Source: Deroplatys truncata (lineage: Eukaryota > Arthropoda > Insecta > Mantodea > Mantidae). Taken from it: DNA of 64,000 bases. Position 1 is the first letter of the stretch. Each line of letters opens with the position of its first letter. The notes below the pieces were generated by a model. The model was given only the letters and a program-made list of their open reading frames with translations. It was not told the origin of the DNA and did not search any database. Shown here piece after piece: positions 18,340-62,860 of the stretch. Made by a program: the position numbers and the translations under genes. The DNA is taken from positions 279,399,341 to 279,463,340 of the forward strand of contig CM060990.1 of assembly GCA_030765065.1 (NCBI GenBank), read 5' to 3'.

Positions 18340-18455
18340 TTTTTTCGAGTGGAGGATAAAATGATTTACTCAATAACCCCAGCCCAGATGGGAGCCGGAA
18401 CTGAGCGAATAGGACTCACCAATAGTCGGCATACACACTAAGAACTCCTCCATCG
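18340..18455 (-). promoter_or_regulatory. LINE 3' terminal hairpin, minus-strand copy
   Basis: On the minus strand GATGGAGGAG, then TTCTTAGTGTGTATGCCGAC, an inner TTCCGGCTCCCATCTGGG hairpin, then ATCCTCCACTCGAAAAAA. This is the same fold as the plus-strand array tails, with the closing stem kept. The six-A run is 18340-18345. Confidence 0.75.
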
Positions 18456-19690
18456 GAAGGAAAATGGAAGAAGGATAAAGACAGGAATAAAACTAAATGT
18501 TGCGGTGTCCCGCATAGTACCCACGTTATTAATTGGAAGCTAATGTGCTGCCGCCCTGTCGGCGGGAACGAGTAAGGGATAATTTCTAGGATGCAGCCAT
18601 AAAACCTGACTGCAACACTGGTGGATAGAAGGTGATAATAGAACGAAATGTGGATAACAGTAGGTGTAGGATGGAGGTAGGATGTTGCTGTTCCGGCTCT
18701 ATTGCCGTCGTTGTCTCAGTTCTACGCTGTTCACTGTCGTCTGTGGTTGATGAAATGAAGTGGTGTAGTTCTCTGCGGTGTAGAGGCTACTGTATATGGT
18801 TTCCAGCCAAGCTGGCAGCTCGGTGGCGATAGTGTGATGTAGGTCGACGGTATACTTAGTTTCTGTTGGTCGTGAAGTTTCTGGGTGATGTCGGCTATGG
18901 TCTCTTCTAGAGCGGCTATGTGGGCACCGAAGTTCAGGAAGCTCGCATGGAAGTGCTTAATAGCTTCCCGTGTCACCTCTTCACTCAAGGGTGCTGGTGG
19001 TGATGGTTCTTACTGGAACCGGGTTGCAGTGAGCCTCGCTAGGGAGTTACGGGCTGACAGCGGCTGCGCGGGTAAAGTGGACACTGCGCCTAGCCTTTGA
19101 AATGGCCGTAGCCATTACAGGTGTCGCAGTCCCGGCGGTGATTCCTCAGTGAGCGCTCCTTGCACTCTGCGGTGATGTAGCAGACGCCACAGTAGTGGCA
19201 CCTAGACTCGGCTGCACAGGTTAATACTTTGTGTCCGTAGAACTAACAGCTTCGACAGGGTACGTGACGATCCACTCGGCTGGCCTCGACGCGTAAGCAC
19301 CGCACTAACAGGTACAAGGCTTGTCCCAAAAGCCGCTTCCTGGTCGCCAGGATCTGCGAGGTCCAGGTGGACGAGCGCCTAAGGTCCATTGACAGTAAGA
19401 ATCCGGGTGGCCCTAAGAGCTGAGGGTCACCTTTGCTGCGCTGCTTCAAAGGTTTACGTTGCTGGAAGGTCTCGTGGTACCCCGGTGATCACCACGCTGT
19501 ACCTCCGAAGAGGCACATATATGGTGCTGAAGGGAGTGACTGAGGCCCCATGGGAGCTGCGGCGGAGGTCGGGTGTTGACTCGGCGACCGCTGCTACATG
19601 CGGGGCGAGGCTGTGTTGGCTGGCGGCGTAACGGCAGCCGAGGCGTACCTAGCCTTGGGTGGCGTCAGATGCGTCGTCTTCCCCGCCGCC
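18340..19690 (-). mobile_element. ORF1-only Jockey-clade unit, left arm
   Basis: Minus-strand unit of about 1.35 kb. ORF1 is decayed at 18735-19690. It starts with Ala/Pro-rich sequence, then an RRM-like block (RRYSVVITGVPRDLP near 19490), three cysteine-histidine knuckles near 19090-19260 (the CHYCGVCYITAEC block and DTCNGYGHF), then a coiled coil with FGAHIAALEETIADITQKL (18860-18930). The 3' tail follows at once, with GTTGCAGTCAGGTTTTATGG (near 18605-18625), GGGTACTATGCGGGACA and the terminal hairpin. No ORF2 lies between. The A-run joins the PolB leader. The 5' boundary to module X is near 19695. It is one of six ORF1 units lacking ORF2. Confidence 0.78.
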
Positions 19691-19699
19691 ACCACCACC

Positions 19700-21760: not shown

Positions 21761-23814
21761 GTCTTTGTCGCCAAATCTGTCATACCTCCATACTCTTTAA
21801 ATGCATATATCTCCTAAATTCAAAGAGATGGAGCGATGCACTGAAAAGCAGTTACATTCTTGGAGTGCAGTGCATCATAGACATATTGTTCCGAATTGAC
21901 CGGGAGACCTGGTGCGTATCCTGAGCATGATTATAGTTTTATCTTTAATATAACTCCTGAACTAACTCCGATAAAGGCGTCAAATAAGCCTTATTACATT
22001 TATCCTATTATAGAGTTTGTGCTGAATGTATACAAGGTACCGATAGTTCTGGATAGCAGTATAATTCTTTAAACTCCATTATCTCTGAAACTATGAACTG
22101 TAGAGGACTGCAACAACGCATGATTGATAGCTAGTATCAGTCTAATTTACATCTCAAAAAGTTAGCGTTCAGTTGTTTAGGTTTCAATGACTTCCTTAAA
22201 TTTCCTCTGTACTCTAAGATATACCGCTTTATTGATGGCGCAAAGTGTATATAAACGTGTTTAACACACAAAATTAAGGTTTTGAATATTTCTGACCCAA
22301 GTGCCCTTAGATCGAATACCGTTTCAATGCCATTCATTTTTAAATTCAATAGCTCTTGAACAAATTTAAGTAAAATGTTCAATTAAATTTTATTAAATAC
22401 ATACCTGTAGGTGGCTTGTTTCAAAAAAGTATATATATATATCGGTATCTTCAGTCCTGGATACCTATTATAGCTGCTCTCAATATCATAAATATTTGGA
22501 GTTCAATTGTCCTCATTTCGATTTCCGATATTTCAAAGACTTCCTTAATTCTCCTCTATATTCTAGCATATACCCCTCAGATTGAAGTTGAAAAGCGCAT
22601 ATAGCTATGTTTAACATTTAAAATTATTACTGTAAATGAGTTTCTTCCTAGTGCCCTGGTTTCGAACACAGATTCGATGAAATTTACTCATCAATTAAAT
22701 AGCTAATTAAGTAATTTAGATAAAGACGCCAAATAAGAGGAAAACAGAGGCTCTGGTCCAGAAATATACTTATAGTGATAAAAATACCTAAAAGCACTTT
22801 GATCGGATCCCGAAGGAATTATGGCATATATGTTCAAAACTATGCTCGTAGCCAGTTCAAATAACACTTAAATAGTAGATGACATTGAGGGAAATTAAAT
22901 TACTTAACATCTTTAGTAAAAGGATTATCTGGTTCAATTATAGGACCTCAAAATTCGGGTAACTCTGGAAAAATTGCTTTACATGAGATTGGAGTGAAAT
23001 GTAATGGTTTTCTGTGAAAACTGAGTAATAATGGTCTACGGAATCTCATGTTGTGTGGTGATTCTGTGGAGCATGATAAAAAGACGGAAAAAAAAGGAAT
23101 GAAAAGGAATCGAAACATGAAATAGTATAGTACATGAATAGATTTAATTAAATAAGGGGAGGTAATTCTCTACACTAGATTCTAAGCGTCTACTTCTAAA
23201 ATATTGTGGTAATAGATGTGGTGTTAAGTTTTATACACTTGGTGGAGGTAGCGCTGTGTAAAGGGTGGCGGTGGGGGATGTTAGCATTTCAATTAATGCA
23301 TCTGTCCGAATGGACGTGTGAAAAGACTTGCCTCTGTTTGGTTTGACGCCATATACAGGTAGGTATGAAACAAGTTTAAACGTGTTCGATAGATCCAGAC
23401 ATCTTGTCTCTGTTTGTGTGTGACGTCTTATGCTGGAGCACTAAAATGAGTCGGATACAACAAATCCGTTTGTATAGAATGGTTTTATGGTTGAATGAAC
23501 CTTTTGGATCACCGATCACATTATATGTGGTTAAAGCGTATTGATGTGTTAATAGAATACTCAAACTTTTACACGCTTAATCACCATTTAATTGCTTAAA
23601 TCAACACACGATCGGTTTGCAAGTATATCAAAATGAGGAAACAGAGTAAAGAGTAAATAATGTTTAACATAGAGTATCTTCTTAAAACCACCAAATAGAT
23701 AAAATATGGGTGTTAACGTCGAAAAAAAAGCAATAAGAACCTTACAGGACTGGATCTGAAATACAATGTTTTCGGAGAAATCCGTGCCTTCTCCATAATA
23801 AGACGTTCCTTTTC
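21760..23814 (+). repeat. PolB element head, module X, right arm
   Basis: Noncoding DNA matching 57430-59210 in the same orientation and 19700-21560 inverted. The 375-400-bp unit recurs with GATAAAGGCGTCAAATAAG near 21970 and GATAAAGACGCCAAATAAG near 22720. The distal part runs through GGAATCTCATGTTGTGTG, GCATCTGTCCGAATGG, AATCACCATTTAATTGCTTAA and GGGTGTTAACG to the LINE junction at about 23815. Short chance frames exist but none is shared between copies. Confidence 0.72.
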
Positions 23815-24534
23815 ACACTTGCTTTCTACCCTTGTTTCAGCCCACGCCCGTCACAGAGCCCTCAAGTCCTCAGCAACAGCTGAGGCGGCCTGGGAGAAGG
23901 GGCCTCCCAACGTGAACGACGTGCGCAGCGTAAGACGGGCCGCTGCATTATGGAGTCGTTCACACAGACAACAATGGCTACCATCAGGACAACGAGCTCA
24001 ACGATGGACCGAGAAGGCCGGATCTCAAGACAGACGCCTGTGCCCAATTGACTGCACAGGACACTATACAAAATCTTTCAATTTATATAAATCTAATATA
24101 ACACAAAAATAGCACAACCTAGCAGTAAGTTAATGCTAAGTCATGTGACACGCAGGCAATCCCTGCAAATAACACACATTTTAGATCTTAGGCATTATTT
24201 ATGTAATACTAGCAATATAAGAAACATACGTAAATAACCCACTGGTATTGCTCAGGTTCCATGGGCAATACTAGCAAGTAACATTTGACGCGCTCGCATG
24301 CAATGCATGCTAGCTAAGTAGCTATTCACATACTAACCGGGGTGCTATGCGGGACCCGACTAAAAGCATGCAAACATAAATGCACGATACTACTCAGCAA
24401 TATACAATTAACTCGTGGTAGGGTTTTTAGTGGGTATTCCGCTTCTGAGTGGGAGCCCCACATATCCCCCGAGCCATTGCACACCGGCTGGGGGTCGAAT
24501 GCAATAATGCATTTTCCCCCCACGGAAAAAAAAA
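23815..24534 (+). mobile_element. Jockey-clade unit U1: ORF2-type 3' region
   Basis: 5'-truncated unit consisting of the 3' UTR of an ORF2-bearing element. The block AGCCCTCAAG...AGCAACAGCTGAGGCGGCC at 23856-23890 also occurs after the ORF2 at 62930-62975. The stretch GACGCGCTCGCATGCAATGC (24289-24308) and AACCGGGGTGCTATGCGGGA (24335-24354) are shared with 33060-33140 and 59365-59435. It ends in the terminal hairpin and nine A residues (24526-24534). It is the first unit of the array and joins module X directly at the 5' side. Open frames inside (23819-24112, 24342-24794) are not conserved coding. Confidence 0.75.
24414..24525 (+). promoter_or_regulatory. LINE 3' terminal hairpin, ORF2 subtype (U1)
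   Basis: CGTGGTAGGG (24414-24423) can pair with CCCCCCACG (24516-24524). Inside are TTTTTAGTGGGTATTCCGC and a small GTGGG-AGC-CCCAC hairpin. A9 follows. This is presumably the reverse-transcriptase recognition structure. Confidence 0.7.
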
Positions 24535-25995
24535 CACTTCGGGAGATAGTTCAGCTCGAGAAGGCGAAGAGGAAACATCGCAGAGTCGCCGAGCCTGCTA
24601 AGGCAGGAACCTCCTCTTCTGCCTCGGCTTCTGCCGAGGGAACCTCACCGCAGTCGCCACAGCCTGGGCCGTCTTACGCCTCGGCCGCAGCTTCTCCACC
24701 CGCCAGCGCAGCTTCGCCGCGACCGCGCCAGCAGTCGCCGCCTCACTCACCGGCACCCACGCTGCCGCTTCTGGATGCTACCCAGCCACCGTAGTGCCAG
24801 CCTGTGCCTCATGGGAGGTACAGTGCTGTCATCAGAGGGGTCCCGAGGGACCTGCCAGTCAGGTTCCTCATCACCGCAGCTCACCAGCAGTGGCCAGGAT
24901 CATTGGAGCACAGGGAGCCACGTCGCTCGTCAGGATGTAGTTTGCAGACCCTGGCGACTACGGAGCGGCCTTGAAGGCGGGCGTGCCCGTGTTAGGGCGG
25001 TGCTTACGCATCGAAGCTAGCTGAGTAGGACGCCAGGCTCCCTGCCGACGGTGCTGTGCCTACGGGCACTGTGAGACGTCCTGCACAGCACAAGGTGCCA
25101 CTATTGTGGCGCCTCCAGCACCACTGCTTCGTGCCAGCAGCACGACCTGCGCCACCGACGCCGCTACTGCACAACTTGTGGAGGAACGACTCATTTCACC
25201 GGTCAGGAGCTCTGGCCCCTGTATCCTCGCAGGAAAGCAACGCCGAAACCTCCTGTCTCTTCCACACCACCGCAGGTGACACCACAACAACCAGTCACCT
25301 TCGAGTACATCACCAGTCACCGCAGAATCAACACCAGCACAGACGACACCACTTCAACCACAACCACCATCGACTACATCAATAGACGCCAGAGAATCTT
25401 CACCAGCACACTCAACCGAAGCGACGACGCGGGAAGTCATTCAGGATCTTCATGCTGAGTTCCTGAACGTCAGTGCCCACTTAGCCGCTCTGGAAGAGGC
25501 CATAGCGGACATCACAGAGCAACACAAAGGAATTTCAGTTTTCCAAACACTGGCTGAAGTTAACCATCAAGCCATCGGCGAGTTTCCGACCCGGCTGGAG
25601 AAAGTCTACGACCGCCTCTACGCCGTGGAGGATAAACTCGACAACATCACGCAGCCGAACAGAAGGCATCAACGTCTCCATCACTAACCTTACCATTACC
25701 ACCAGGAATCCTCCCTCATCCTCACCTTGAATTCGCCGCGGGGGCAGACTGGGCCTCGGTCAAGTCTGTCTCCCTGCAATAACTCCTTATTCCACTGGCG
25801 ACCGCACTGCGGCCCAGTTTCAACCCTCACCTTGGACTGCGCGTGTTCTTTAGGCGGTACCGCAGCAAACCTTTTCCTTTCAATCCGGTGGAGGAGTTTT
25901 TAGTGGGTATGCCGACGACTCGGTGAGTACACGCTCTCAGTCCCGATTTCAATCGGGGCTGGGGTCAGTGATTAAATCATTTTCTCCTCCACTTG
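24535..25995 (+). mobile_element. ORF1-only Jockey-clade unit U2
   Basis: A 1461-bp unit starting CACT immediately after the A-run of U1 and ending at the hairpin before A8. ORF1 begins at 24561, where the expected ATG is AAG. Compare CTCCGAG-ATG in U3 with GCTCGAG-AAG here, so the start is lost. ORF1 order: basic and Ala/Pro/Ser-rich N-terminus (24561-24790), RRM-like block with RGVPRDLPVRFL (24835-24870), zinc knuckles in shifted frames (25030-25240), Pro/Gln/Thr-rich linker, then a coiled coil containing AHLAALEEAIADITEQ (25470-25520) up to about 25690. The 3' UTR is 300 bp and there is no ORF2. It lacks the GCTATGCGGGA block found in the other tails. Frameshifts are present throughout. 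The product would be a nucleic-acid-binding Gag-like protein. Confidence 0.8.
25888..25992 (+). promoter_or_regulatory. LINE 3' terminal hairpin (U2)
   Basis: GTGGAGGAG (25888-25896) pairs with CTCCTCCAC (25984-25992). Inside are TTTTTAGTGGGTATGCCGAC and an inner hairpin CAGTCCCGAT-TTCA-ATCGGGGCTG with one G-U pair. A8 follows at 25996-26003. Confidence 0.8.
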
Positions 25996-26003
25996 AAAAA
26001 AAA

Positions 26004-27456
26004 CACTTACATCGCTCCGAGATGGCGAGGAAGAAGGGTCGCTCTGTCGCCGCTCCTGCTAAGGCAGGAACTTCTTCGTCTCCCCCGGTACCCACCGAGG
26101 AGATCTTACCGAAGCCGCAGCAGCCTAGGGCAACCTACGCATCGACCGCCGCTTCACCGCCAGCCAGCTCAGCTTCGCCGCGACTGCCTCCACAGTTGCT
26201 GCCAGCATCAGCGGTGCTAACGCCGCCGAAGCTGGGAGCTTAGGAGCCTGCGCCAATCCAGCCTGTGCCTCATGGGAGGTACAGCGTTGTCATCCGAGGG
26301 GTCCCGAGGGACCTGCCAGACAGGTTCCTCATCACCGCAGCTTACCAGCAGTGGCCTTCAGCCATGAAGGCCACAAGGATCATCGGAGCACAGGGACCCA
26401 CGTCGCTCGTTAGGATGGAGTTTGCAGACCCTGGCGACTACGAAGCGGCCTTGAGGGCGGGCCTACCCTTGTTAGGGCGGTGCTTACGCATAGAGGCTCG
26501 CCGAGTGGAACGCCAGGCTCCCTGAAGGCGCTGCTGTGCCTATGGGCAAAACGAGACGTCCTGCGCAGCACAACCCAGGTGCCACTACTGTGGATCAGCC
26601 TTCACTACGTCTTCGTGCACCCAGCACGATCTTCGCCGCCGACGCCGCTACTTTGCGACCTGTGGAGGGTCAACCCACTTCACCGGCCAAGCGCTCTGCC
26701 CTCTGCATCCTCGCAGGAAGGCACCGCTGAAGCTACCAGCACCTACCCCGCAGCCAGTGGCCGCTCCACAAGTGCCGTCACCGGCGCAGACACCAGTACC
26801 ATCACCAGCGCCAAAACCAGCACCATCACTCACGCCGATCGTCGAGGAAGTCCAGGGCCTACGTGACGCCGTTAAGAATCTCCACGGGAGTTCCTGAACA
26901 TGACGACGAAGCTGGCAGCCCTGGAGGAACTCATCAGGGACCTTCAAAACTCATCAGCTCTCCAACAGGTTTTCCTGGCTGGGCAGTTCGACAGCACCTC
27001 ATCGAGACTTACAGCCATCACCGAAGCCATCCGGGTCTCATCTCTTGGTCACCGTCCGAAGACGGACCCGGCGAGAGTCGCGAGCTTCTTGCAGCAATGC
27101 AAGGAGTTCACCCAGCAACAGGAGCATCATCGTCAGTACCATCCATAATCCTAACTTGCATTCACTTCCTAAACCCTCGCCACTCCCACTAGTGTGGCAG
27201 TCAGATTTCATGGCTGCAACCTAGAAACTACCTTTACCCGTTCCCGCCCAAAGAGCGGCAGCCAACAGCCTTCACTTACTAACGCGGGTGCTATGCGGGA
27301 CCGCTCAAAGCCACGCCATTCCACTTTTCCTTCTTCCTTTTCCATCCGGTGGAGGAATTTTTAGTGGGTATGCCGACTATTGGTGAGTCCCATACTCTCA
27401 GTCCCGACTCCCATCGGGACTGGGGTCAGTGATTAAATGATTTTCTCCTCCACTCG
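26004..27456 (+). mobile_element. ORF1-only Jockey-clade unit U3
   Basis: A 1453-bp unit from CACT to the terminal hairpin, almost the same length as U2. The ATG is at 26022, giving MARKKGRSVAAPAKAGTSSS. Domains across several frames: Ala/Pro-rich N-terminus (26022-26260), RRM-like block with VVIRGVPRDLPDRFL and SLVRMEFADPGDYEAALRAG (26265-26520), three zinc knuckles (26520-26690) in a shifted frame, Pro-rich linker (26700-26860) and a coiled coil with MTTKLAALEELIRDLQ (26900-26950), ending near 27148. A 3' UTR of about 300 bp follows, with GTGTGGCAGTCAGATTTCAT and AACGCGGGTGCTATGCGGGA. No ORF2 is present. The protein would be a Gag-like RNA-binding protein. The decay is lighter than in the PolB remnants. 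Confidence 0.82.
27349..27453 (+). promoter_or_regulatory. LINE 3' terminal hairpin (U3)
   Basis: GTGGAGGAA (27349-27357) pairs with CTCCTCCAC (27445-27453) with one mismatch. The inner stem CAGTCCCGA (27399-27407) pairs perfectly with TCGGGACTG (27414-27422) over a six-base loop. A7 follows at 27457-27463. Confidence 0.82.
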
Positions 27457-27463
27457 AAAAAAA

Positions 27464-28018
27464 CACTGTCCAAACTGCACGTCATCACTGCACGGCTGCA
27501 GAACCTGGAGGCCAGCTTCGAGGAAGGAAGACATTCAGCATCATCACGCATTCCACAACCACCACAGAAGTCCCCGCTGCTCATCTCCGAGAGCCAGCAG
27601 CGAATTCTTGCACAGTGCCGTGCGCTTGTGCAAGACTAACCCAAACGACGACGGCAGCCAGAGCCAGAGTAAGTCCAAATTCATAACCATCCCTTTCTAA
27701 TATCTCGTCTGAGTCCCCTTTTCTATTACAACTTCCTAACCTCTAGGCTACAGTCAAGGAAATTTGTCATGTCTGTAGCCTCGGACTGCACTTTACGCCG
27801 CTCGCGCCCATTGGATGGCAGCACAGAATCTTTCGCTAAACTAACACGTGTGCTATGCGGGACCGTGCTACTTTCCCTATGGAGTTCCTCTCAAAACCCA
27901 CAACCTAACCGGTGGAGGAGTTTTTAGTGGGTATGCCGACGCTCGGTGAGTCCCACACTCTCAGCCACACTCCCATCGGTGCTGAGGTCAGTGATTAAAT
28001 CATTTTCTCCTCCACTCG
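27464..28018 (+). mobile_element. ORF1-only unit U4, 5'-truncated
   Basis: A 555-bp unit. It starts CACTG directly after the A-run of U3 and enters the C-terminal coiled coil of ORF1 (ARLQNLEASFEEGRH, 27490-27535), ending at a stop near 27640. A 3' UTR follows with TGTCTGTAGCCTCGGACTGC, GTGTGCTATGCGGGACC and the terminal hairpin. It has neither RRM, zinc knuckles nor ORF2. The coiled coil differs from that of U3, so this belongs to another ORF1 lineage, closer to U5 in tail structure. Confidence 0.72.
27912..28015 (+). promoter_or_regulatory. LINE 3' terminal hairpin (U4), with compensatory change
   Basis: GTGGAGGAG (27912-27920) pairs with CTCCTCCAC (28007-28015). The inner stem is CAGCCAC...GTGCTG (27962-27982 region) instead of CAGTCCCGA...TCGGGACTG, so both sides changed while pairing is largely kept. 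A5 follows at 28019-28023. Confidence 0.75.
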
Positions 28019-28023
28019 AAAAA

Positions 28024-29415
28024 CACTGACCGGGGAGGCCCAAGATGGGTAAGAGAAGGACACGCCGAGCAGCCGCTGAGGAAGCCGCCGCCGAAGCTTC
28101 AGCATCCGCCGCTATGCCGTCATCTGATGAAGCCACTCCGGCCCTCGCCGCTGCTGATTTGCCGGCCGCTCTCCCGTCATCTGCCGGGAGTGCAGCCTCA
28201 CCGCCGCCGATGGCCGGGCCTTCTTGGGCATCGGTCACGGCTTCGACCAGACACCAACAGCAACCTTTTCGCACAGTCAACACCGCACATCACCTTCCGC
28301 CACAGCAATCGACTACACCAACAGCACAGCAACCCGCGCAACAGCTACCACCACCACATACTACATCACCACAGATGTCATCACGGTGCAGCGCGATGAT
28401 TTCTAGAGTACCCGGGATCTTCCACCAAGATACGTCTTCACCGCCGCCCAACACCGGTGGCCTTCAACCTTGAAGGCCACAAGGATCATCACATCTCGGG
28501 GGCCAAAATCGCTGGTACGCCTGTTATTCACCCATCCGGCCGACCGCGAGGCTTCCTTGAGGTCCGGCCTGCCCTTATTAGGGCGGATTTTTCATATTGA
28601 GGTTAGCCGAGCGGAAGGCCACCAACCATGCCGCCGATGCTGCTGTTACGAGCACGACTCCACGACCTGCGCTGCACCTCCGAGGTGCCACTACTGCGGT
28701 GCACCCTCCTTGACTTCGCAGTGCACCAACCACGACCTCCGCCGACGCCGCCGGTATTGTGCGACTTGCAATGGCCACGGCCATTTTACGGGTCAGTCAC
28801 AGTGCCCCAGATATCCACGACAGCTCCGACCACCTACTCTTCCACCGACGCTCACCACACCGGCACAAGCTCAGGCCGACACCACCGACCACCACTTAAA
28901 GGACACCCTGCAGGGTCCTCATGCAGAGGTCCTAAACATCGCCGCACGACTGACCACCACAGAAGAGACCATCAGGTCAAACTGCGCCTCCCACGCAGAG
29001 ACAAACCTGCGAAGACTGAACACATTTGAAGCTGTACTAGAGGACCTACACCAACTCACCGCAGCACACACAATCACACTCCAACAGTTTACCAACCGTT
29101 GGGAAACACAACAAAAAGCCGTTAACGCAACAATTCAGGCCCTGGCAGACGACCACACTCAACTGCAGACTCAAATTCTCGATCACTGTAACAGCAAACC
29201 ACACGCAAGTACATCAATCTCTACTACTACAACCACTCCAGACGAACAACAATCTCCGGCACGGGCCATTTAGGATCCTTCTCAATTCCACAACACATCA
29301 CACCCAACCGTAGAACCAACAAACTTACCGAAGACCACGACAAGTCGCTCCTCACAGGAAGAACGAGCCCGCCGCAAAACTCAACACAGGTAGAACATCA
29401 CCTCAGAACAACAAG
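28024..29415 (+). mobile_element. ORF1-only unit U5, 3'-truncated, best-preserved Gag
   Basis: This starts CACT after A5. The ATG is at 28045, giving MGKRRTRRAAAEEAAAEASA, followed by an Ala/Pro-rich stretch and a Gln/Thr-rich stretch to 28473. A frameshift near 28470 leads into an 804-bp open stretch (to the stop at 29271-29273). That stretch holds the end of the RRM-like block (SLVRLLFTHPADREASLRSG) and zinc knuckle 1 as CRRCCCYEHDSTTC near 28629 (CX2CX4HX4C). Knuckle 2 follows as CHYCGAPSLTSQC and knuckle 3 as CATCNGHGHFTGQSQC, then a long coiled coil (about residues 160-250 of this frame). The 3' UTR is cut at about 29415, where U6 begins, so there is no hairpin. The N-terminus differs from U3, showing a distinct lineage. 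Confidence 0.82.
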
Positions 29416-30693
29416 ACGACGACTGCCGCTGCAGTCGCCGCCAACATCACCGGAGTTCACGCCGCCGATCCTGGGAGCTTCCCAGCCTCCGCCGAACCAG
29501 TCTGTGCTTCATGGGAGGTACAGCGCTGTCATCCGAGGGGTCCCGAGGGACCTGCCAGACAGGTTCCTCGTCAGCACAACTCACCAGCAGTGGCCTTCAG
29601 CCTTAAAGGCAACTCGAATTTTCAGAGCTCAGGGACCCACGTCGCTCGTCATGATCGAGTACGCAGACATTGGCGACTATGAAGCGGCCTTGAGGGCGGG
29701 TCTGCCCTTGTTATGGCGGTACTTACGCATCGAGGTCAGCCGATCAGAATGCCAGATGCCCTGCAGGCGCTGCTGTGCCTACGGGCACGAGGAGAAGACC
29801 TGCTCAGCTCAACCAAGGTGCCACTACTGTGGTTACGCCTGCACTACCTCATTTGTACCCAGCAATCCTACGCCGCCGCCGCTAATGTGCAGCCTGTGGA
29901 GGGTCAACGCACTTCACCGGCCAAGCGCTCTGCCCCCGCATCCTCGCAGGAAGGCACCGCTGAAGCCACCAGCTCCTACGCCGCAGCCAGTGACCGCTCC
30001 ACAGCCGCCAACACCAGCGCCGACATCAGCATCATCACCAGCGCCGACACCAGCACCATCACTATCGCCCATCATCGAGGTAGTCCAGTGCCTAGTGACG
30101 CCGTTCAGGATCTCCACGCAGAGTTTCTGAGAATGACGACGAAGCTGACAGCCCTGGAGGAACTCATCAGGGATCTTCAAACCCCATCAGCTGCTCAACA
30201 GCTTTCCTGGCTGGGAGTTCGACAGCACTTCATCCAAACTGAAAGTCATCACCGAAGCCATCCGGGTCTCATCTCTTGGTCCCAGGCTGAAGAGTAACAC
30301 GGAGAGAGTCGCCAACTTCTTGCAGTAATGCAAGGAGTACAGCCAGCAGCAGCAGTATCATCATCAGTACCATTCTCAAACCCAACCTCCATTCTCTTCC
30401 AAACCCGCGTCATTCCCACTAGTGTTGCAGTCAGGTTTCATGGCTGCAACCTAGTAACTACCTTTACCCGTTCCCGCCCATAGGGTGGCAGACAACATCC
30501 CTCACGTACTAACGCGGGCGCTATGCGGAACCGCTCAAAGTCACGCCCTTCCACTTTACCTTCTTCCTTTTTCCATCCGGTGGAGGAGTTTTTAGTGGGT
30601 ATGCTGACTATTGGTGAGCCCCACACTCTCACTCCCGACTCCCATCGGGGCTGAGGTCAGAGATTAAATCATTTTCTCCTCCACTCGAAAAAA
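29416..30693 (+). mobile_element. ORF1-only unit U6, 5'-truncated
   Basis: ORF1 enters in the Pro-rich segment (about 29430). The RRM-like block has SAVIRGVPRDLPDRFLV (29522-29575) and YADIGDYEAALRAGLP. Zinc knuckle 1 is CRRCCAYGHEEKTC near 29761-29802. The second knuckle begins CHYCG but then shifts frame. A Pro/Thr-rich linker follows, then a coiled coil with MTTKLTALEELIRDLQ (30134-30181), very close to U3. The stop is near 30295. A 3' UTR of about 290 bp follows with GTGTTGCAGTCAGGTTTCAT, CGCTATGCGG and the terminal hairpin, A6 at 30688-30693. There is no ORF2, although the following unit is ORF2 sequence joined after the A-run. U6 and U3 share the closest 3' UTRs in the window. Confidence 0.82.
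30580..30684 (+). promoter_or_regulatory. LINE 3' terminal hairpin (U6)
   Basis: GTGGAGGAG (30580-30588) pairs with CTCCTCCAC (30676-30684). Inside are TTTTTAGTGGGTATGCTGAC and an inner stem CTCCCGACTCCCATCGGGGC. A6 follows. Confidence 0.78.
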
Positions 30694-32520
30694 CTAAGAC
30701 CTTTACGCAACCAAGCTGGCAACAATCACGGCAGTCGCGGTACACGTACCGAAGGCGTATGATACATAACTTCCAGCGGATCTTAAAGCGCTAACAGCGG
30801 AACGAAATCGAGCAAGACGAAAATGGCAGCGAACTCGCCACATACTTGACCTCAAAGAATTCCAAAATCTCAACAACTTGATTAGGCAGAGATAAAGTAC
30901 GTATACTCCCGCTACACCACAACCAAAAAACAGCAACCACAGACCAAGAAAAAGCCGATACAGTGAGTGATGCGCTCCAAGACACCCTAACCCCGAATGG
31001 AGCTCCATGTTGTCCACATTTCATAGCAGACACAGAGATGGAAATCCGCGACTTTCATCAACGACAGGTGCAAAACTTAGTTCGTAAAACCTGCCCATCC
31101 GAAATCCAATGACTAAACAAACATCTACCTCAATGAAAAGCACGTAGCTCTAAAACACCTAACCGATGATGCGGTACATATATTAGCAACAATTTTCAAC
31201 TTCGTATTAACACAAGGGCCGTTCCCCGAAAGATGCAAAATTGCCCATGTAATGCACTTCCCGAAAAAGAAGAAGAACCTCGCCAATCCCAACAACTATC
31301 GCCCTGTTAGTTTACTGAACACATTAAACAAGCTATTAGAAAAAGTAATACTAAAAGACTCAACGCAGCAATCAGTAAACACGACATCCTCATCCCAGAA
31401 ATATTCGGCTTATAAGCCGAACACTCAACGTCGTTGCAGCTTTTAAGGGTCACAGACAGCATCACAAACAGGTTCAACATACGAAAGTCCACAGCAGCAT
31501 TACTCCTTGATGTCGAACGGACTTTCGAAAAAGTTTAGCATGCGGGAATACCGAAAAACTAAGCCTCATTAGGCATTCCTGGCTCGCTAATAAAACTAAT
31601 GGCTAAGTACTTGAAGTATAGAAAGTTCCACTCCTCAGTGAACAACAGTCGGTTTTCCAATAGACCCATTAACGCGGGCGTCCCACAAGGAAGTATACTT
31701 GAACCTATACTATTTAACTTAGACATAAACAACATGCCCAAAAACTACAAACACCGCCTTCTGCATATACACGGATGATGCAACAATAATGGCGCAATCG
31801 TTCAAACTGCAAGTAATACACACCCGCCTCCAGAATGCCTTCCTAGCGCTGGAAAGTTGGCTCACAAACTGTCGGATCAAAGTAAATGCCCCAAAGAACC
31901 AAGCAATAATCTACACAAACGGAATAAATCACAGTTTAGAAACGCTCACCCTCTTCGGTGAGAACATAAACTAAAACTCGAATGTAACGTGGTTAGGGCT
32001 AAACTGGACCAAAAGTTTGACTTGGAATGCCCATATAAACCAATTTAGGGGAAAAGGAAATGACTAATTGGGCAAAATACACCCTCTTATAAACCTAAAG
32101 AAGCAACTAAACCTCAAATTAGGCTAACCCTCTACAAAACACTAATTGGCCCCATTCTAACCTATGCAGCGCCTGTGTGGGGATACGCCGCAGAAACACA
32201 CGACAAAAGACTACAAACTTTCCAAAATAAAATCTTACGCTTAGTATCAAAAGTGCCAGTGATACCTCCCGCTGGTATACTACATGATGAACTAAACTGC
32301 ATACCATTGAGGAATTTATTACAACGCTTACGTTTGATACATACAAAAAGCTCCATGCACATCACAACCCTCTAATACATGACTTAGGCAACTATACCAC
32401 CGAAGCGAACAAACACAAGCGTCCCCTCTCAATATTCGACCAAACACTATTCTATAACGCGACACAGCCTAACATCCTAGAATTCCTAGATAAACTCCTA
32501 AGATTCCCCTAAATGACCAA
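30694..32520 (+). pseudogene. Jockey-clade reverse transcriptase (ORF2) remnant, U7
   Basis: This would reverse-transcribe LINE RNA at the nicked target. The first 400 bp correspond to the linker before the RT, with NRARRKWQRTRHILDLKEFQ in one frame (30800-30860). RT blocks: AHVMHFPKKKKN and NNYRPVSLLNTLNKLLEK (31235-31345); FG.. then a frameshifted palm; GVPQGSILEPILFN (31678-31719); the catalytic YTDD at 31768-31779, intact; thumb with PILTYAAPVWGYAAETH and LQTFQNKILRLVSKVP (32150-32260). The YAAPVWG...LQ..QNK.LR block is diagnostic of the Jockey clade. The endonuclease is absent because of 5' truncation. There are five or more frameshifts and stops. Confidence 0.86.
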
Positions 32521-33184
32521 GAACAAGACTAATCTCACTGCACGACCTTCTCACTGTTAGAGATTTCCAGTCCATGCAGTAGCCTTCGATGTCCTTGAGT
32601 TACCCAGCCAGACGGCCCTGGGAGAAGCAGGCCTACCCGTGTGACACACTCATGCAGCTGCGCCGAGATGGGTGGGCTGCTAATCTGTGTGGGCAGAACG
32701 ATGAATTAAGGACCACGAGAAGACGAAAAGATAATCTTGCAAACAGCAATGCGGACGTCCCAGGAGATCCTCCTGGTGGAATTTCATAACGCTATTACTA
32801 GGGGGAAGGAATACCAGAAGATTCATAAGACGACTGCCTAATCATAGCCTATGAGGATTCACCTTAACCTTAGAATAAGACGCTATACATAACCTAGGTT
32901 AGATATACAACAACGTTTGCACTAACTGCAAGAACACAAATCACTGTATTTCCATTGCATGTAACGGATTAATACTATTATCATAATTATCTAGCACTTA
33001 CTCCTATTGTAATGCACGAATAATCATCCGGGATTACTCAGGGCGTCAGTTATGTGCAACTAACTGTTGACGCGCTCGCATGCAATGCATGCAAGAATCA
33101 CATTTTTTATTGATTAACCGGGGTGCGGGGTCCTATGCGCGAACCGACTAGCTTGCACGAACACACTAATAATTATCGAATACT

Positions 33185-33300
33185 AACACATGGAGAGGTT
33201 TTTAGTGGGTATTCCGCGATGGAGAGGCGAGCCCCACATACCCACCCTAGCCTTTGCACCCCGGCTGGGGGTTGAATGCAGTAATGCATTCCCCCCACGG
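33185..33300 (+). promoter_or_regulatory. LINE 3' terminal hairpin, ORF2 subtype (U7)
   Basis: TGGAGAGG, then TTTTTAGTGGGTATTCCGC, then GAGCCCCACATACCCACC, GGCTGGGGGTTGAATGCAG and CCCCCCACGG before A5. The closing stem is weaker than in U1 but the core words are the same. Confidence 0.65.
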
Positions 33301-33305
33301 AAAAA

Positions 33306-33480
33306 CAAATTAGACCTTCATTGTGCTACTTTGGTTTCAGACGAGAACATCATCTTCTCTAAGCGTAATCAGCTCTCGAGCATGTCCAGAGGATGTCATC
33401 GTGCAGATGTGTGTTCCACTGAATAAGTCGATCAGGGATATATTGGTCAGTATTTACAAGGATTTTTGTGGTATTTAGCA
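33306..33480 (+). other. PolB element 5' leader, right arm
   Basis: Noncoding leader shared with 18203-18339 (inverted) and 63345-63415. Landmarks are GAGAACATCATCTTCTCTAAG, AATCAGCTCTCGAG, TGAATAAGTCGATCAGGGAT and GATTTTTGTGGTATTTAGCAG. It lies between the LINE array and the PolB coding region. Confidence 0.7.
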
Positions 33481-33489
33481 GATTGTAGA

Positions 33490-36400
33490 GATGGAGAGCG
33501 CTACATTCAAGGAAGTATTTCCAAATAGAAAGTCTGCTAACAAGTGCGGTAAATGCGGAAAGAGTTTTCTATAAACCTATCACAAGAGGCGACATGAAAT
33601 GGGTTGCAAGCAGCTCTTCGTGTAAGTATTGTGAAAGGTTCGTCAACAATAGCTATAAGGGAGAATATCATGAAGAGGTATGTAGATTCACTACTCCATG
33701 CAAGAAAATGAACACGAAGCCTACGAAACATCAACTGTTATAAACTATGGATGAAGGGTATAATACGAGGGAGTAGGAAACAGCATTTCAGTGGGTTTGA
33801 AATCTTATTTCATTTGCTGTGATTTATCACATAATATGAATCATTATTTACAGGAAGCAAAGCAGCGTAAAATTTAAGTAGTTCAGAAAGAGATTAGAGT
33901 TCATAACTTAGTGAACATTAATCTACTGGTGGAATGTCGGTTTGTAAGTATGTTGGACAAACAACTGCTAAAACCTTTAAAACCCCTTATCATCCCGTGT
34001 TTCTACAAACGGCTCTAGATGCCATGTTAGATTGAAATTCAAGAAATTTACTACTAAAATGGAGAAGTCCCAGTTTAACAGCAGCGACTGGAATTTTCTT
34101 GCCGTGGAGGGGGTTCGGCTCCGCATTAACAAGTACAATCCTCTTCCACGAAGCAGCGATTTTCCTCTACCAGTCTCTATTGGAGCTAAAGGGCCTTATA
34201 TAAACCCACAAATCTGTCGTGATGAAAAGTGATTCATGTACTCTATCCTTCTCAAAACCCGAAGTTTGAGAAAAAATAACATATTTTTAAATGTTTTTGG
34301 ACTAAATGAGGAACAAGAAGTATTTCCTATAAGGGTCATTGATGACGAAGTTTCTAATTTTCTTGATCTTCTTCTGTTGAGTGATGCTGTTGGACTACAA
34401 CACTCTGTTTATATAAAGAATATCGAGAAGCTTGTTCGGCGTCAGAAAATTAAACATAATTGAATGATATATAAACTCGGGGGTTGCTTCACGCATTTTT
34501 ATGATCAATATGAAAGAAGCCGGCTGGAATAATCACAAGAATATTGCACTATCTGCAGTCAACATGATATGGCTCGGTTAGTTATGCCTACAAAGGAAAG
34601 CTGTATCCTGCAATTAAAAAATTTGGAGAGGATGCTGAAAATAGTCTACATCATCTATGCGAATTATGAGAGAACGCTCATGCCATATCATACATGCTCT
34701 GCTAATACCCAGAGTTCCCATACAACTTCATAACAGGAACATTCTCCGCTGAGCTTTTGTGTTTATTTCAAACCTTTAACTGGTGTTTAACGTCTAGAAA
34801 CCGGTCTTCCTACTCAACCCTATGCATGTCGTGGTTGTGACGCTACTGAGAAGTTCATGGAATACCTAACATCCCTGGCGAAGAAGATCGATAGTATATA
34901 GAAATCTGCTAAGTCGCAGAAACTTATGGATGAACAACAAGAGAATTTCGAGTCTTCCACATAGTGCCATCTTTGTGTTAAGGAATTTAAGGAACAGCAT
35001 TACAAAGTGAACGAGTGCGACTATATCAGCGGCAAATACCCATGAAGTCTGCATAATAAGGTGTAATTTAGCCTGCAAAACACCTAAATATATAACTGTC
35101 TTCCTTCAGAACCTGAGCGGATATGATTCACATTTCATTGCTAAGGAGTTGGGATGTACAAGCGAGAGAATAGAGGCGATTCTGAGCTCTGAAGAAAGCT
35201 AAATCTCACTCTCTAATTATGTCGGGTATATATAGCTCCGGCTTGTGGATACCTATCCTTTCCGAGTACAAGCCTAGATAACCTATTGAAACCTCCACCA
35301 GCATTTAAACCGAGACAGAAAAGTCCTTTAGACGTGAGAAGTTGTGTATGACTGCTCGTAAGGGCGTATTTCCATATGAATACATCACTTTATTGGATGT
35401 CTTGAAATAGGAACTATTGCGTTCAAGAGAAGCGTTCAACAACAAATTAAATGCAGAGTAAATTAGCAACGATGACTACGATTATGGTAAAAAAATCTGT
35501 AGGAGCAGTTCAACATACGAAATTTAGACGAGTACAGCGACCTCTACTTAACCTCCGACGCTCTTCTTTTGGCTGATATCTTTGAGTCATTTAGAGAGCA
35601 GACCCTGATTCCGCTCATTATTTCACATTTCCAGGACTTACTTGGGACGTCATGCTTTGTACACTGGACTTGAATTGGAATTGCTACAGGATTACGATCA
35701 GCTTCTCATGGTGGAAAATGGTATAAGGGGAGGTTTGTGCCGTGGTTCCTACCGGTAAGCAGAGGCAAATAGCTTCTACCTGCAAAAGTTTGATCCTGTG
35801 AAATCACCTGCATTTATCACATCCGAGGACGCCAATAACCAATATGGATGGGGCAATGTGGCACGCCCTAACTTATTGAAATTTGAGTGGGTTTCCCCTA
35901 GAGATAGCAATCTAAACAGTTTAAAAGAAGATAACCTTTAGCGACATATTTCAGAAGTTGATATAGAATATCCTGCTGAGCTCCATGACCTGCATAACGA
36001 TTTACCACTCCTACTGGAGTGTTTGTAACCAAACAATTATTTTACAAAGAAGCTAATTCCTCACCTTGGACCTCGACGAAAGTAAGTTGTCCACCATAGG
36101 ACCTTGAAACAAGTCTCTCTCTCATGGATACTACAACTACCATCGACAACCATGATGGTTAAAACCTTACGTCGAATTTAATAGCAAGCTACGGCAAGTT
36201 ACTGCAAACGATTTTAAGAAGGATCGCTACAAGCTGTTCAACATTCCATGAAGAACACCCGAGTCGGATGGATGTCCGGCTTGTGACAGATCGTAAAATG
36301 TTGGAAAAGTTTATAGCAAAACCACATTCATTGATAGAACTATATATGGAGATACCTTGGCAGCTGTGCATATGGCTTCAAAAGAGATTGTGTTTAGCAA

Positions 36401-37860: not shown

Positions 37861-37899
37861 GGATATGCTTCAGAAAAGCTGTAAACCATACAAACTTCA

Positions 37900-39150: not shown

Positions 39151-39179
39151 AAGTGTGCCAAGCTTAGGTCAACATGCGG

Positions 39180-59210: not shown

Positions 59211-59600
59211 TTCCAGCTTAGATATAACTATAAATATCATGACTAGCAGGTAAACCCTGCGCACACTCAGAACATTAGAAATAAGCAATTAATACTCAAA
59301 AAATTAACGCATGATCTCCACTGTTATTGTCCAGGTCTCATGGACAATACCAGCAATTAATCATTGACACGCTCGCATACAATGCATGCCAGCTACCTAG
59401 CGATCCAAATACTAACCGGGGTGTTATGCGGGATCCGACCAATGCATGTATGCACGTAGATCACAACAATGTACAATTAACATGTGGAAGGATTGTTAGT
59501 GGGTATTTCGCATTGAGCTGCAAGCCCCACATATCACCCCAGCCATTGCACAGCGGATGGGGGTTGAATGTAGTAATGCATTTTCCCCTCACGGAAAAAA
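59211..59600 (+). mobile_element. Jockey-clade 3' region, 5'-truncated (pair 2)
   Basis: Corresponds to 24150-24534. It contains AGCAGGTAAACCCTGCGCAC (59246), GACACGCTCGCATACAATGC (59365-59384), AACCGGGGTGTTATGCGGG and the hairpin (59481-59594) ending in A6 at 59595-59600. It joins module X about where U1 does, with a different truncation point. Confidence 0.78.
59481..59594 (+). promoter_or_regulatory. LINE 3' terminal hairpin, ORF2 subtype (pair 2)
   Basis: CATGTGGAAGGA, then TTGTTAGTGGGTATTTCGC, GCAAGCCCCACATATCACCC, GGATGGGGGTTGAATGTAG and CCCCTCACGG before A6. The closing stem is weaker but the core is the same. Confidence 0.65.
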
Positions 59601-60225
59601 CATAGACATAGAATTAAGGTGAAGGTGGAGCTGTACGGACGGCGGTCATCCCGGTGCAGTGCCGTCGATATCACAGCTCCGACACACCGAGGCGAGGTAC
59701 ACTGCGAGCGTGGTGTAGTGCTCTAAGTGCAGGGACCTCATGACTCGAATCCGCAACGTTCCCCCACCTCAGGGAAATTCGCACTCTGTCTCTGTTTAGA
59801 CCAAGGTTTCATATACCGGATTTGACCCGCGCACCAGCGGCAGGATGCTGCGGCGCGCAATATCCAGGGAACAGGGGCACGTGCAGTGAGTGAATGCGGG
59901 AGTCGTTGTGCGAGGAGACGCTCCGGCGCAGATCTCACCCGATTCTGGTGTGCCTGAGAGGTGACCTGAAGCAACTGCAGGGGAGAGGAGGCCCAGGATC
60001 CAGAGGCTTAAACAACCACCGGGTAAGCCACGTCATGTAACGAGGGACAGACCTACGTGCCGAGAGACCCTCGCAGATCCACGTCTGGAGCATCAGTGCC
60101 AAACGTACCGGAGAATCCAGGCTGAGGGATGGCAGGACCAGGACATAAGGAGACCTGCCTGCAGATCTTCTAGATCTTGGCGTCATCGGAGGAGTCGGAG
60201 ACTCGATCCATCCAGGCAACTTACC
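59601..60225 (+). other. GC-rich segment of unknown origin before ORF2
   Basis: About 620 bp, GC-rich against AT-rich surroundings, between the A-run and the first recognisable endonuclease sequence. Neither strand gives a motif that I recognise, although both carry open stretches (minus 59738-59974 and 59935-60219). It could be the 5' UTR or ORF1 end of the following Jockey unit, or an unrelated insert. Confidence 0.35.
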
Positions 60226-62860
60226 GCGGAGGCAACTTACCGCAATAATCGAGGAGGCAGAACTGTCATAATAATTAAATAAGACACAGAAAATTACCTA
60301 GCAACGCAAACTCAGTTCAGAACACTGGAAGCAACTAGTATTTACATCACACTAGATAACAACCGAGTACTCGTACCGGCGGCATACGCGGCACCAGGTG
60401 CATTAAGCTTAGCTGACATAAACGCGTTCATGCAATTAAACAACAGAGTAATTATAGCTGGTGACCATTTAATGCTAAGCACCAATTTTGGGACTGCCAC
60501 GAGACCAACCCCGAAGACACTGCTACTTTGAACTTAAAAGTGATTATATAATTCACATTCCAACTAAACACACGTAAATTCCTTACAGCAGAAACCTACG
60601 CCCAGAAATCTCAGACTTAGCAATCACTCTTTACCAAACCCGCAGAATCAACTTACAAGTAAAAAACGAACTATCCTCCGACAATTACTACTATTGTAAC
60701 CTTAGAGTGCTCAGCAATCCAAGAACCTCCAGTCCAGCGAGGCAACTACAACAAAGCTGGCTGGGAAAGATTTGCAACGACCGTAAACCCAAACTTACCC
60801 ACAATGGCATTAAGCCTTCCTTCCGCGAGTCGCCAAATATTCAACACGCACTGCATCATTCAGCAGCATGGAAAAACAAAGGGACAATGGCGGAGAGAGA
60901 ACGGCGCCTACGAGTCAAAATTACCTGCGAGTCCCGTTTTCGCCACCTCTGGCATTAAGCACGATCGTAAACATGAAAGCGGTAATAACACAACCCAAGC
61001 AAGCCATCAAAACCGCAACCACCGCGGCGGTAGCGTTAAGTAAACCAAGACAAACTTACTCTAAGCTGGCACAAGACATACACATGCTAGTTGAAGAAGG
61101 AAATCGAGCTAGGCGAAAATGGCAGAGTTCACAACAGATAGCGGACCTAGAATACTTCAGATACTTAAACGGCCTAGTAAAAGAAAGAACAAGGAAGTGG
61201 GAGCACACACTAGAGAACCTCAAGCACGAACGAGACTCTGTGTGGAGAAATAGCTCGTTGCTTAACGCGCGACAAAACTCAAATTTGACCCCTACACTAC
61301 AATCAAACAATCGCTTCAACAGATCAGCAAAAAGCAGATACACCAGCAGACGCGCTGCAACAAACATTACACCGAATCCCACTCCGTCCTGTCCACATTT
61401 CACGGCAGATACGGAGACGCGAGCTGACAACTACAAGGAACAGGTAACTCACAACTTAGTGCGAAAAACATGCTCTGGTGAAATTAAATGACTAATTAAG
61501 CGTCTTCCAAGGAGAAAAGCCCCAGGGCCGGACAGTATCCCTACAGCAGCCCTCTTGCATCCACCGGAGGATGTAAGAAAACTACTCTCTAAAGTATATA
61601 ATTATGTGCTAACAAGCGGGCACTACCCAGACAAGTGGAAGCTGGCCACTGTGGTTCACTTCCCCCCAAAAAGGGGAAATCTATTACACGCGCACAACTA
61701 CAGACCAATTAGTCTCCTGAGCACCCTAGGTAAGCTTCTGGAAAAGTAATACTTAAACGTCTCAACATCCAATTAATTAAACAAAATATCGTAATTCCTG
61801 AACAGCTTGGTTTCCGAGCCAAACATTCACAACCCTACAATTAATCTTGGCAACTGAAAGCATCACCTACGGCTTTAATATAAACAAATCAACAGGTGCA
61901 CTCTTGCTCGACGTTGAACGAGCATTCGAGAGAATATGGCACGCTGGCATATTGAGGAAGCTCAAAACAATAAATATACACAATTGCTTAATCAAAATTA
62001 TAGCAAACTACTTAAACAACAGAAAATTTCAATTCAGGGTGAACAATCACCTCCCGACAGAACGCCCAATCAAAGCAAGAGCACCACAAGGCAGCTTGTT
62101 TGGGCCCACTCTATTTCACATATACACAAACTACATCCCAAAAAACCGTAAACGCAAACTTATATACACGTTGACGATACAGCCATAATGACACAATAAG
62201 GCAAAACCGAATTCATACACCGAAGTTTACAAAGCGCCCTTAACAATCTAGAGGATTGGCTTAAAATGTCAAATTAACGTTAATGCACATAAACGCAAGC
62301 GATAGTTTTCACAAAACGCAACAATCACAGATTTCCAAAACACCAGTTGCCACCACTTACCATATCTGGTAAAAAGACAGGAAGGAAGGACTCAATAATC
62401 TGGCTAGGTCTCACAATGTACCAGGGATTCACATGGAATAAGCACATACTACAAATCCGGATAAAGCCAACGCCCAATTAGGCAGGCTCTACCCAATCAT
62501 TAACATGGACTGCCAGTTAAAGCTCAAAATCATACTCACGCTATACAAAACACTGATCCGAACAGTCTTCACCAATGCTGCACCAGTATGGGGATATGCC
62601 GCCAGATCATACATAAAAAGATTACAAGCTTTCCGAAATAAACTACTACGAATATAGACAAAGTACCTTACATAGCTCCATTTCAGATATTACATGAAGA
62701 GCTTAAAATGCATACAGTAGAAGAGTTCATTACGACACAGGGAATAACAAGCACAACTACCCCTGTCACTATTCGATCGAACGCTATCAGAAGATAACTC
62801 AGAATAAATACAGCACTTCCTCGACAATATTCTGCAGTTATGGCAATGACACTGACAAAG
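60226..62860 (+). pseudogene. Jockey-clade ORF2 remnant: endonuclease, RT
   Basis: More complete than U7. The endonuclease reads RGGRTVIIIK (60255-60285), SLEATSIYITLDNNRVLVPA-like (60325-60380), then GALSLADINAFMQLNNRVII and AGDHLML in place of the usual GDLN (60400-60475). A long linker open to 61491 has NRARRKWQSSQQIADLEYF (61100-61155) and LPRRKAPGPDSIPTAAL at 61504-61555. RT blocks: NYRPISLLSTLGKLLEK (61696-61746), LLLDVERAFERIWHAGIL (61900-61955, motif A Asp kept), RAPQGSLFGPTLFHIY (62077-62130), then VDDTAIM at 62167-62190 after a one-base shift (both catalytic Asp kept). The thumb is near 62555-62650. The stop and frame changes make it inactive. Confidence 0.86.

What the first reader, a model, noticed from the sequence alone, without database searches (positions are those of the whole stretch)
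24535..30693. Head-to-tail array of ORF1-only Jockey-clade units, a HeT-A-like organisation
Seen: U2, U3, U4, U5 and U6, plus the unit at 18340-19690, carry ORF1 (RRM-like block, CCHC knuckles, coiled coil). In five of the six the 3' UTR follows directly, without ORF2. U2 and U3 are 1461 and 1453 bp from CACT to the A-run, so the ORF1-only unit has a fixed length. ORF2 units in the same array (U1, U7) end in the same kind of 3' tail. Known: Drosophila HeT-A is a Gag-only Jockey-clade element that uses RT from partners such as TART. Mammalian HAL1 is an ORF1-only L1 derivative. Inference: this is a gag-only retroelement family mobilised in trans by an RT-coding sister family, forming mixed arrays. 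Chance internal deletion would not give repeated, nearly equal lengths.
Basis: partly seen in the sequence, partly recalled or inferred. Interest (0 to 1): 0.88.

Follow-up and report, generated by a model that had tools for sequence, protein, structure and literature searches.

The report
Gag-only retrotransposons stacked head-to-tail
This animal genome carries about a thousand or more copies of a small jumping element that makes only its packaging protein and lacks the copying enzyme; copies and their enzyme-coding partners often insert again at the same spot, building head-to-tail stacks at many places inside chromosomes.

Summary
The array is real and the gag-only reading holds genome-wide; the HeT-A comparison holds only in part. 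Unit U3 has 4194 candidate relatives in a 4.29-Gb assembly (40 scored); its 5' end occurs at 1050 places (control 0). Of 32 full-length copies examined, 27 are 1447-1466 bp, 12 keep an intact 378-380 aa ORF1 and 20 have good target-site duplications (TSDs). Intact ORF1s show median dN/dS 0.39. At least three gag-only families exist. The likely RT donor, type B (2215 candidates), has its own different gag, an APE endonuclease, RT, and a 3' UTR homologous to two of those families. Head-to-tail junctions are widespread: 79 gag-only/gag-only, 44 type-B/gag-only, controls 0. The spacer behaves as the local TSD: 9 of 9 same-array pairs share it, against 1.7% of other pairs. So arrays form by repeated insertion at one nick, as in R1 tandems, not by addition to chromosome ends; TTAGG repeats are present. 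Best filed as a HAL1/HeT-A-like gag-only lineage with R1-like stacking. Trans-mobilisation is inferred.

The parts
18340..19690 (-). Um: gag-only unit of the minus-strand array, type-A 3' UTR, A-run followed by the target flank (..CCTAGACCTTTATTGT)
23816..24534 (+). U1: 5'-truncated RT-family (type B) unit, ORF2 3' end plus type-B 3' UTR, A9
24535..26003 (+). U2: full-length gag-only unit, A1-like ORF1 core with A4-like 3' UTR (called subfamily A3 here); ORF1 broken
26004..27463 (+). U3: full-length gag-only unit, subfamily A1; ORF1 broken here, intact in some genome copies
27464..28023 (+). U4: 5'-truncated gag-only unit, subfamily A2 (ORF1 C-terminus plus 3' UTR)
28024..29410 (+). U5: gag-only 5' part with a 288-aa stop-free ORF1 run; 3' UTR missing (fused to U6)
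29411..30693 (+). U6: A1 unit lacking its first ~175 nt, with type-A 3' UTR and A6
30694..33305 (+). U7: RT-family (type B) unit, 5'-truncated within ORF2; RVT_1 matches; type-B 3' UTR; flanked by a diverged TSD-like repeat (11 of 14 identical)
24535..24538 (+). CACT spacer (target-derived, likely TSD); same at 26004, 27464, 28024 and before U1 near 23816
33306..33800 (+). Target downstream flank (..TTAGACCTTCATTGTGC..); also beyond Um (18333, minus) and in L020; at 63338 the same flank family without its boundary
21836..23815 (+). Target upstream flank (repeat X), also at 57449-59215 and inverted at 19696-21490
27348..27461 (+). Type-A 3' terminal RNA structure (closing stem GGUGGAGGA/UCCUCCACU); related tails at 25887, 27911, 30579, 18456 (minus) and, type B, at 24416, 33190, 59484; the tails at 18456 and 59484 do not fold better than shuffles
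59216..63337 (+). Third array: truncated type-B 3' end (59216-59600) plus a type-B ORF2 unit (59601-63337) whose tail is deleted into the target flank

Best explanation
The units are copies of gag-only (ORF1-only) non-LTR retrotransposon families that encode a conserved Gag-like protein and end in a structured 3' UTR, for A1 and A2 homologous to that of an autonomous ORF1+ORF2 family (type B) in the same genome. The type-B endonuclease/RT most likely copies them in trans by target-primed reverse transcription, recognising the shared 3' end (inferred). Fetched copies are mostly single and often flanked by ordinary TSDs (shown). Arrays arise when new copies of either type insert again at the same nick beside a resident copy, so that the local TSD ends up between units (read from spacers; empty sites were not seen). 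Whether each new copy enters at the 3' or the 5' TSD of the resident copy is not known.
For: Dispersed family: 4194 candidates, 40 scored; 1050 5' ends at up to 2 mismatches, control 0. Fixed length: 27 of 32 full-length copies are 1447-1466 bp, range 1415-1466; intact ORF1 of 378-380 aa in 12 of 32. TSD score >=8 in 20 of 32 (5 of the 32 copies lie in arrays L022, L028, L038), against 11.3% of 986 mismatched flank pairs. ORF1 selection: 66 pairs of 12 intact copies, median dN/dS 0.39, range 0.19-0.65; A1 against A4 dN 0.35-0.38 with dS 2.0-3.5; third-position excess over the core in all 10 pairs of window units. Several gag-only families: A1, A2 and A4, the last with a 562-aa open frame. Partner: L048 has ORF1 with a PRE_C2HC match, an APE endonuclease, RVT_1 and the type-B 3' UTR. 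Shared 3' end: A1 and A2 against B score 58 and 50, highest of 200 shuffles 29 and 26; 6 of 21 consensus pairs have changes on both sides that keep pairing. Stacking: 79 A->A and 44 B->A exact junctions, controls 0; 9 of 9 same-array pairs share >=6 nt of spacer, against 1.7% of 3072 other pairs.
Against: No functional test of trans-mobilisation. The only type-B copy read (L048) has frameshifts, so no intact RT donor was seen. A-gag and B-gag are only weakly alike (24% over 132 aa, E 0.028; hhalign probability 3.7). The PRE_C2HC match is below Pfam's cut-off (20.4 against 22.1 bits). A4 against the B 3' UTR did not beat the shuffles (26 against 26). dN/dS used only copies with open frames, which biases it; one A2 pair gave 0.91. 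Copies were fetched by likeness to a gag-only unit, so an ORF1A+ORF2 master could be missed. Twelve of 32 copies lack a good TSD. Two of eight tails fold no better than shuffles. Of 13 A->A/B->A junction pairs within 15 kb, 3 share only 0-3 nt of spacer.
Confidence: 0.8

Rival explanations
1. HeT-A proper: gag-only units added end-to-end at chromosome termini, maintaining telomeres, later buried.
For: Gag-only units with an RT partner that has its own gag, uniform head-to-tail orientation, internal A-runs. Five of 70 A->A junctions on contigs of known length lie within 1 Mb of a contig end, all on C15; of 44 B->A junctions, three lie within 0.5 Mb of the C15 end and two at about 0.26-0.27 Mb on C5.
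Confidence: 0.03
2. Each gag-only subfamily is an independent internal-deletion derivative (HAL1-like) of its own ORF1A+ORF2 master, so 'gag-only lineage' is a repeated accident rather than one long-lived lineage.
For: HAL1 is a documented precedent (passage in PMC5322556). A1, A2 and A4 differ in gag C-terminus and 3' UTR; U2 joins an A1-like core to an A4-like 3' UTR.
Against: No match to type-B ORF2 DNA in the 39 fetched loci, and the few RT protein matches there lie outside the units. The one type-B copy read carries a very different gag. A1/A4 divergence is near saturation at synonymous sites although both are gag-only.
Confidence: 0.3
3. Arrays reflect strict site-specific insertion, R1-like, into particular positions of other repeats (in the window, a site between repeat X and a PolB-like reading frame).
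For: The same X|flank site is occupied in two window loci with intact boundary, in a third whose boundary is deleted, and in L020 (flank match 73% over 104 nt). Spacer CAACTTAGACC recurs at C7:286164365. Spacers recur between distant loci: 45 pairs share >=6 nt, shuffled mean 18.7, maximum 31 over 30 shuffles.
Against: Dispersed copies and most arrays have different TSDs or spacers; the window loci could also be copies of one old insertion.
Confidence: 0.35
4. Arrays grew by unequal crossing-over or segmental duplication of one insertion.
For: A few junctions have identical spacers at several places (C16:656.48, 656.65 and 656.82 Mb; C2:197.87 and 198.37 Mb).
Against: Neighbouring units in the window and in four fetched arrays differ in family, length or truncation point, and type B sits next to type A at 44 junctions.
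Confidence: 0.05

Closest known systems
Drosophila HeT-A with TART/TAHRE
   Same: Gag-only element, RT-coding partner, same-orientation mixed arrays (PMC4700185 and PMC5537684, passages seen)
   Different: Not telomeric as far as seen; TSDs; dispersed; TTAGG repeats present; no TAHRE-like A-gag+ORF2 element found
Mammalian HAL1 (half-L1)
   Same: ORF1-only, A-tail, TSDs, dispersed, needs RT/EN from full-length LINEs (PMC5322556, passage seen)
   Different: The likely partner has a PRE_C2HC-like gag, unlike L1 (recalled); several gag-only subfamilies; stacked arrays
R1 tandem arrays in Drosophila rDNA
   Same: Units of one array separated by the TSD, read by the authors as repeated insertion into a TSD (PMC2718515, passages seen)
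   Different: R1 is autonomous and sits at the 28S site; here many loci, many spacers, and mixed gag-only and RT families
Transposon-targeting non-LTR elements
   Same: Transposons are listed among targets of site-specific non-LTR elements (PMC4640811, passages seen); the X|flank site is a repeated target
   Different: Strict specificity not shown here

Membership tests
HeT-A | Encodes Gag only | tested here: met
   12 of 32 copies with intact 378-380 aa ORF1, full-length copies contiguous with no ORF2
HeT-A | Added to chromosome ends, telomere-specific | tested here: not met
   Dispersed copies and mostly internal arrays; TTAGG repeats present
HeT-A | No nick needed, hence no TSD | tested here: not met
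   TSD in 20 of 32 against 11.3% of 986 controls
HeT-A | Head-to-tail arrays mixed with an RT-coding partner | tested here: met
   79 A->A and 44 B->A junctions, controls 0
HeT-A | Promoter in the 3' UTR drives the downstream neighbour | not testable with these tools
   No transcript data
HAL1 | ORF1-only, A-tail, TSDs, dispersed | tested here: met
HAL1 | Derived from L1 | tested here: inconclusive
   Partner gag resembles PRE_C2HC, which points away from L1; no RT tree was built
R1 tandem arrays | Units separated by the TSD | tested here: met
   9 of 9 same-array pairs share >=6 nt of spacer, 1.7% of 3072 others
R1 tandem arrays | One fixed target (28S rDNA) | tested here: not met
   Spacers differ between loci
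Jockey clade (type B partner) | PRE_C2HC gag, APE endonuclease, RT, no RNase H (features as recalled) | tested here: inconclusive
   APE and RT matched; PRE_C2HC match below Pfam cut-off; no RNase H match in three frames of the two window copies; the C-terminal part of L048 ORF2 was not scanned
Jockey clade (type B partner) | RT groups with Jockey in a tree | not tested
   No reference RTs at hand; protein search gave none

The most novel reading that the evidence does not exclude
An independent HeT-A/TART-like division of labour evolved outside telomeres, in a genome that has TTAGG repeats: a long-lived, diversified gag-only clade, under selection for Gag, shares its 3' end with autonomous elements whose own gag is different, and both types prefer the junction of a resident copy as target. 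This would be a non-telomeric model of the state from which retrotransposon telomeres could have evolved.
Probability: 0.35. Interest if true: 0.8.

Novelty: new variant of a known kind. Interest (0 to 1): 0.62.

Why it matters
Gag-only LINEs are rarely described; the two cases I know are HeT-A and HAL1. Here signs of selection on Gag, several subfamilies, a matching RT partner and mixed arrays punctuated by target duplications occur together, at many loci. This lets one test why a LINE would keep Gag but drop RT, how an RT picks foreign templates through a shared 3' structure, and whether growth on resident copies can precede a telomere role.

Tried and rejected
Rejected: (a) CACT as the element 5' end: it also precedes 5'-truncated U1 and U4, and genome copies start differently. 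(b) My own first idea that the family is strictly specific for the X|PolB-like site: dispersed copies have many targets; kept only as a partial rival. (c) HeT-A membership. (d) Unequal crossing-over for the window array.

Led nowhere: protein database searches with U5 ORF1, an RT piece and the A-gag alignment, none with a hit at the threshold; Pfam on the PolB-like flank (no family), so that name rests on recalled motifs; PDB searches (nothing convincing); structure prediction; literature searches (0 papers).

Rows dropped: one search used all 79 A->A junctions. One search used 65 of 79 and 38 of 44, leaving out repeats within one array, some identical copies and very short spacers. One search used 12 of 32 copies (open frame of 378-381 aa). 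Neighbouring units were annotated in four of the 39 fetched loci; for the rest I rely on the flanks printed.
Full report
What was claimed and what is there. The finding describes a head-to-tail array of ORF1-only units with hairpin tails. The array is there. Units are separated by an A-run followed by CACT at four junctions (24535, 26004, 27464, 28024), and CACT also follows the end of the upstream repeat X before U1. U1 and U4 are 5'-truncated, and U2 and U3 have leaders of different length between CACT and the homologous start codon, so CACT most likely belongs to the target, not to the element. U5 and U6 are fused: U5 has lost its 3' UTR and U6 its first ~175 nt. U7 is a 5'-truncated RT unit with a diverged duplication around it (AACTAAGACCTTTA / AAATTAGACCTTCA, 11 of 14 identical).

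Location. The window is C16:279399341-279463340 of an unnamed 4.29-Gb assembly of 818 contigs. A 25-mer of TTAGG repeats has 28,859 matches (reversed control 41); the list shown is capped, and in it one array starts about 15 kb from the end of contig C1 (contig length). TTAGG fits an arthropod (recalled).

The gag-only family. A search with U3 gave 4194 candidates, of which 40 were scored, giving 53 match rows. I fetched 39 regions around those matches. Thirty-two full-length copies were found in them; body length is 1415-1466 bp and 27 of 32 are 1447-1466. Twelve of 32 have an open ORF1 of 378-380 aa; a thirteenth (L039) is open for 385 aa with an altered C-terminus. The 24-nt 5' end (up to 2 mismatches) occurs at 1050 places, reversed-pattern control 0. 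TSDs: 20 of 32 copies score >=8, against 11.3% of 986 mismatched flank pairs; 5 of the 32 copies lie in arrays L022, L028 and L038. The single copies with TSDs are ordinary target-primed insertions at many targets. Four of the 39 loci hold arrays (L020, L022, L028, L038). No type-B ORF2 DNA matched in the 39 loci; a few RT protein matches (L017, L033, L041, L043) lie outside the units.

Selection on Gag. Among 12 intact copies (66 pairs) median dN is 0.042, dS 0.109, dN/dS 0.39, range 0.19-0.65; taking only open copies biases this. Between subfamilies, A1 against A4 has dN 0.35-0.38 and dS 2.0-3.5, and A1 against U5 dN/dS 0.23-0.26; one A2 pair gave 0.91, with very few changes. In the window units third codon positions differ most in all 10 pairs over the core, for example U2/U3 17, 10, 30 of about 124; over the short first block this does not hold for every pair. 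A-gag has no convincing Pfam family and no relative at E <= 0.01 in the protein database. It resembles the type-B gag weakly, with the knuckles in register (24% over 132 aa, E 0.028; hhalign probability 3.7).

More than one gag-only family. Array L022 reads type-B tail, A2, A1, A4; L028 reads A2, A2, four A1, A4 (cut by the end of the locus); L038 reads A2, A2, A1; L020 has two A1-like units between repeat X and the same flank as in the window. A4 has a 562-aa open frame followed directly by a type-A 3' UTR. U2 joins an A1-like core to an A4-like 3' UTR.

The partner. Type-B ORF2 plus 3' UTR has 2215 candidates (40 scored, 80 match rows). One copy, L048, was read: ORF1 with a PRE_C2HC match (E 5.6e-4, 20.4 bits against a cut-off of 22.1), APE endonuclease (5e-12), RVT_1 (9e-11, 1e-10), type-B 3' UTR, with frameshifts. 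A1 and A2 3' UTRs align with the type-B one above all of 200 shuffles (58 and 50 against at most 29 and 26); A4 does not (26 against 26). Eight tails share a consensus structure with 21 pairs, six of which have changes on both sides that keep pairing. Six of the eight tails fold clearly better than shuffles; Um (z -0.92) and the third-array B tail (z -0.35) do not.

How arrays form. The exact pattern of A tail, A-run, 4-34 nt and A 5' end occurs at 79 places (control 0), in 66 clusters. In 9 of 9 same-strand pairs within 5 kb the spacers share 6-9 nt; 1.7% of 3072 other pairs share 6 or more. Type-B tail to A 5' end occurs at 44 places (control 0). Of 13 A->A/B->A pairs within 15 kb, 6 share 7-10 nt of spacer, 4 share 5, and 3 share 0, 2 and 3; 5.4% of 2457 other pairs share 5 or more (65 of 79 and 38 of 44 junctions used). 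The spacer therefore behaves as the local target duplication. This is the pattern reported for R1 tandems in Drosophila rDNA (PMC2718515, passages seen). I saw no empty site, so the duplication is inferred from repetition, not from a pre-insertion allele.

Target preference and position. The window site, between X and a reading frame that I recognise from memory as PolB-like (no Pfam support), is used in two window loci with intact boundary, a third with deleted boundary, and L020; the spacer CAACTTAGACC occurs at C7:286164365. Across distant loci 45 spacer pairs share >=6 nt, against a shuffled mean of 18.7 (maximum 31 over 30 shuffles). Some targets recur, but specificity is not strict. Five of 70 A->A junctions on contigs of known length lie within 1 Mb of a contig end, all on C15, and five of 44 B->A junctions lie near the C15 and C5 ends; this possible subtelomeric excess was not tested.

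Comparison. HeT-A: same coding plan and mixed arrays, but TSDs, dispersal and TTAGG repeats do not fit (passages in PMC4700185 and PMC5537684). HAL1: same architecture and dispersal (passage in PMC5322556), different ancestry as far as tested. In my nine literature searches no listed title or abstract start names gag-only LINEs in arrays punctuated by target duplications; they cover only the held open-access library, and I read passages of five papers, none whole.

Shown: family, length, intact ORF1, TSDs, junctions, shared spacers, partner domains, 3' UTR homology for A1 and A2. Inferred: use of type-B RT in trans, the order of insertion, the reason for keeping Gag.

Noticed in passing
window 2400-42400: The window is a diverged inverted duplication centred near 21.66 kb: repeat X, retro units and PolB-like flank on both arms, and 3960-7876 against 35803-39621 inverted at 77%.
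   Followed up: partly
window 33306-36900 and 17172-18333 (minus): Flank reading frames look PolB/Maverick-like from recalled motifs; Pfam found nothing.
   Followed up: partly
G000 C15:133.7-134.07 Mb and C5:0.26-0.27 Mb: Several array junctions lie within 0.5 Mb of a contig end at these two ends; a subtelomeric excess was not tested statistically.
   Followed up: partly
window 7863-12326 (minus): Two related LINE stretches (76.9% alike), one with an RNase H match (8454-9182, E 4e-6).
   Followed up: no
window 54034-54425: Minisatellite of 117- and 76-bp units.
   Followed up: no
window 44214-44579: Open frame that looks Gypsy-like from memory; no convincing Pfam hit.
   Followed up: no
L048:5472-5601: The type-B tail is directly followed by another type-B-like ORF2 fragment, so type-B units may also abut each other.
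   Followed up: no
window 24535-26003 (U2): Mosaic unit: A1-like ORF1 core with an A4-like 3' UTR, suggesting template switching between gag-only families.
   Followed up: partly
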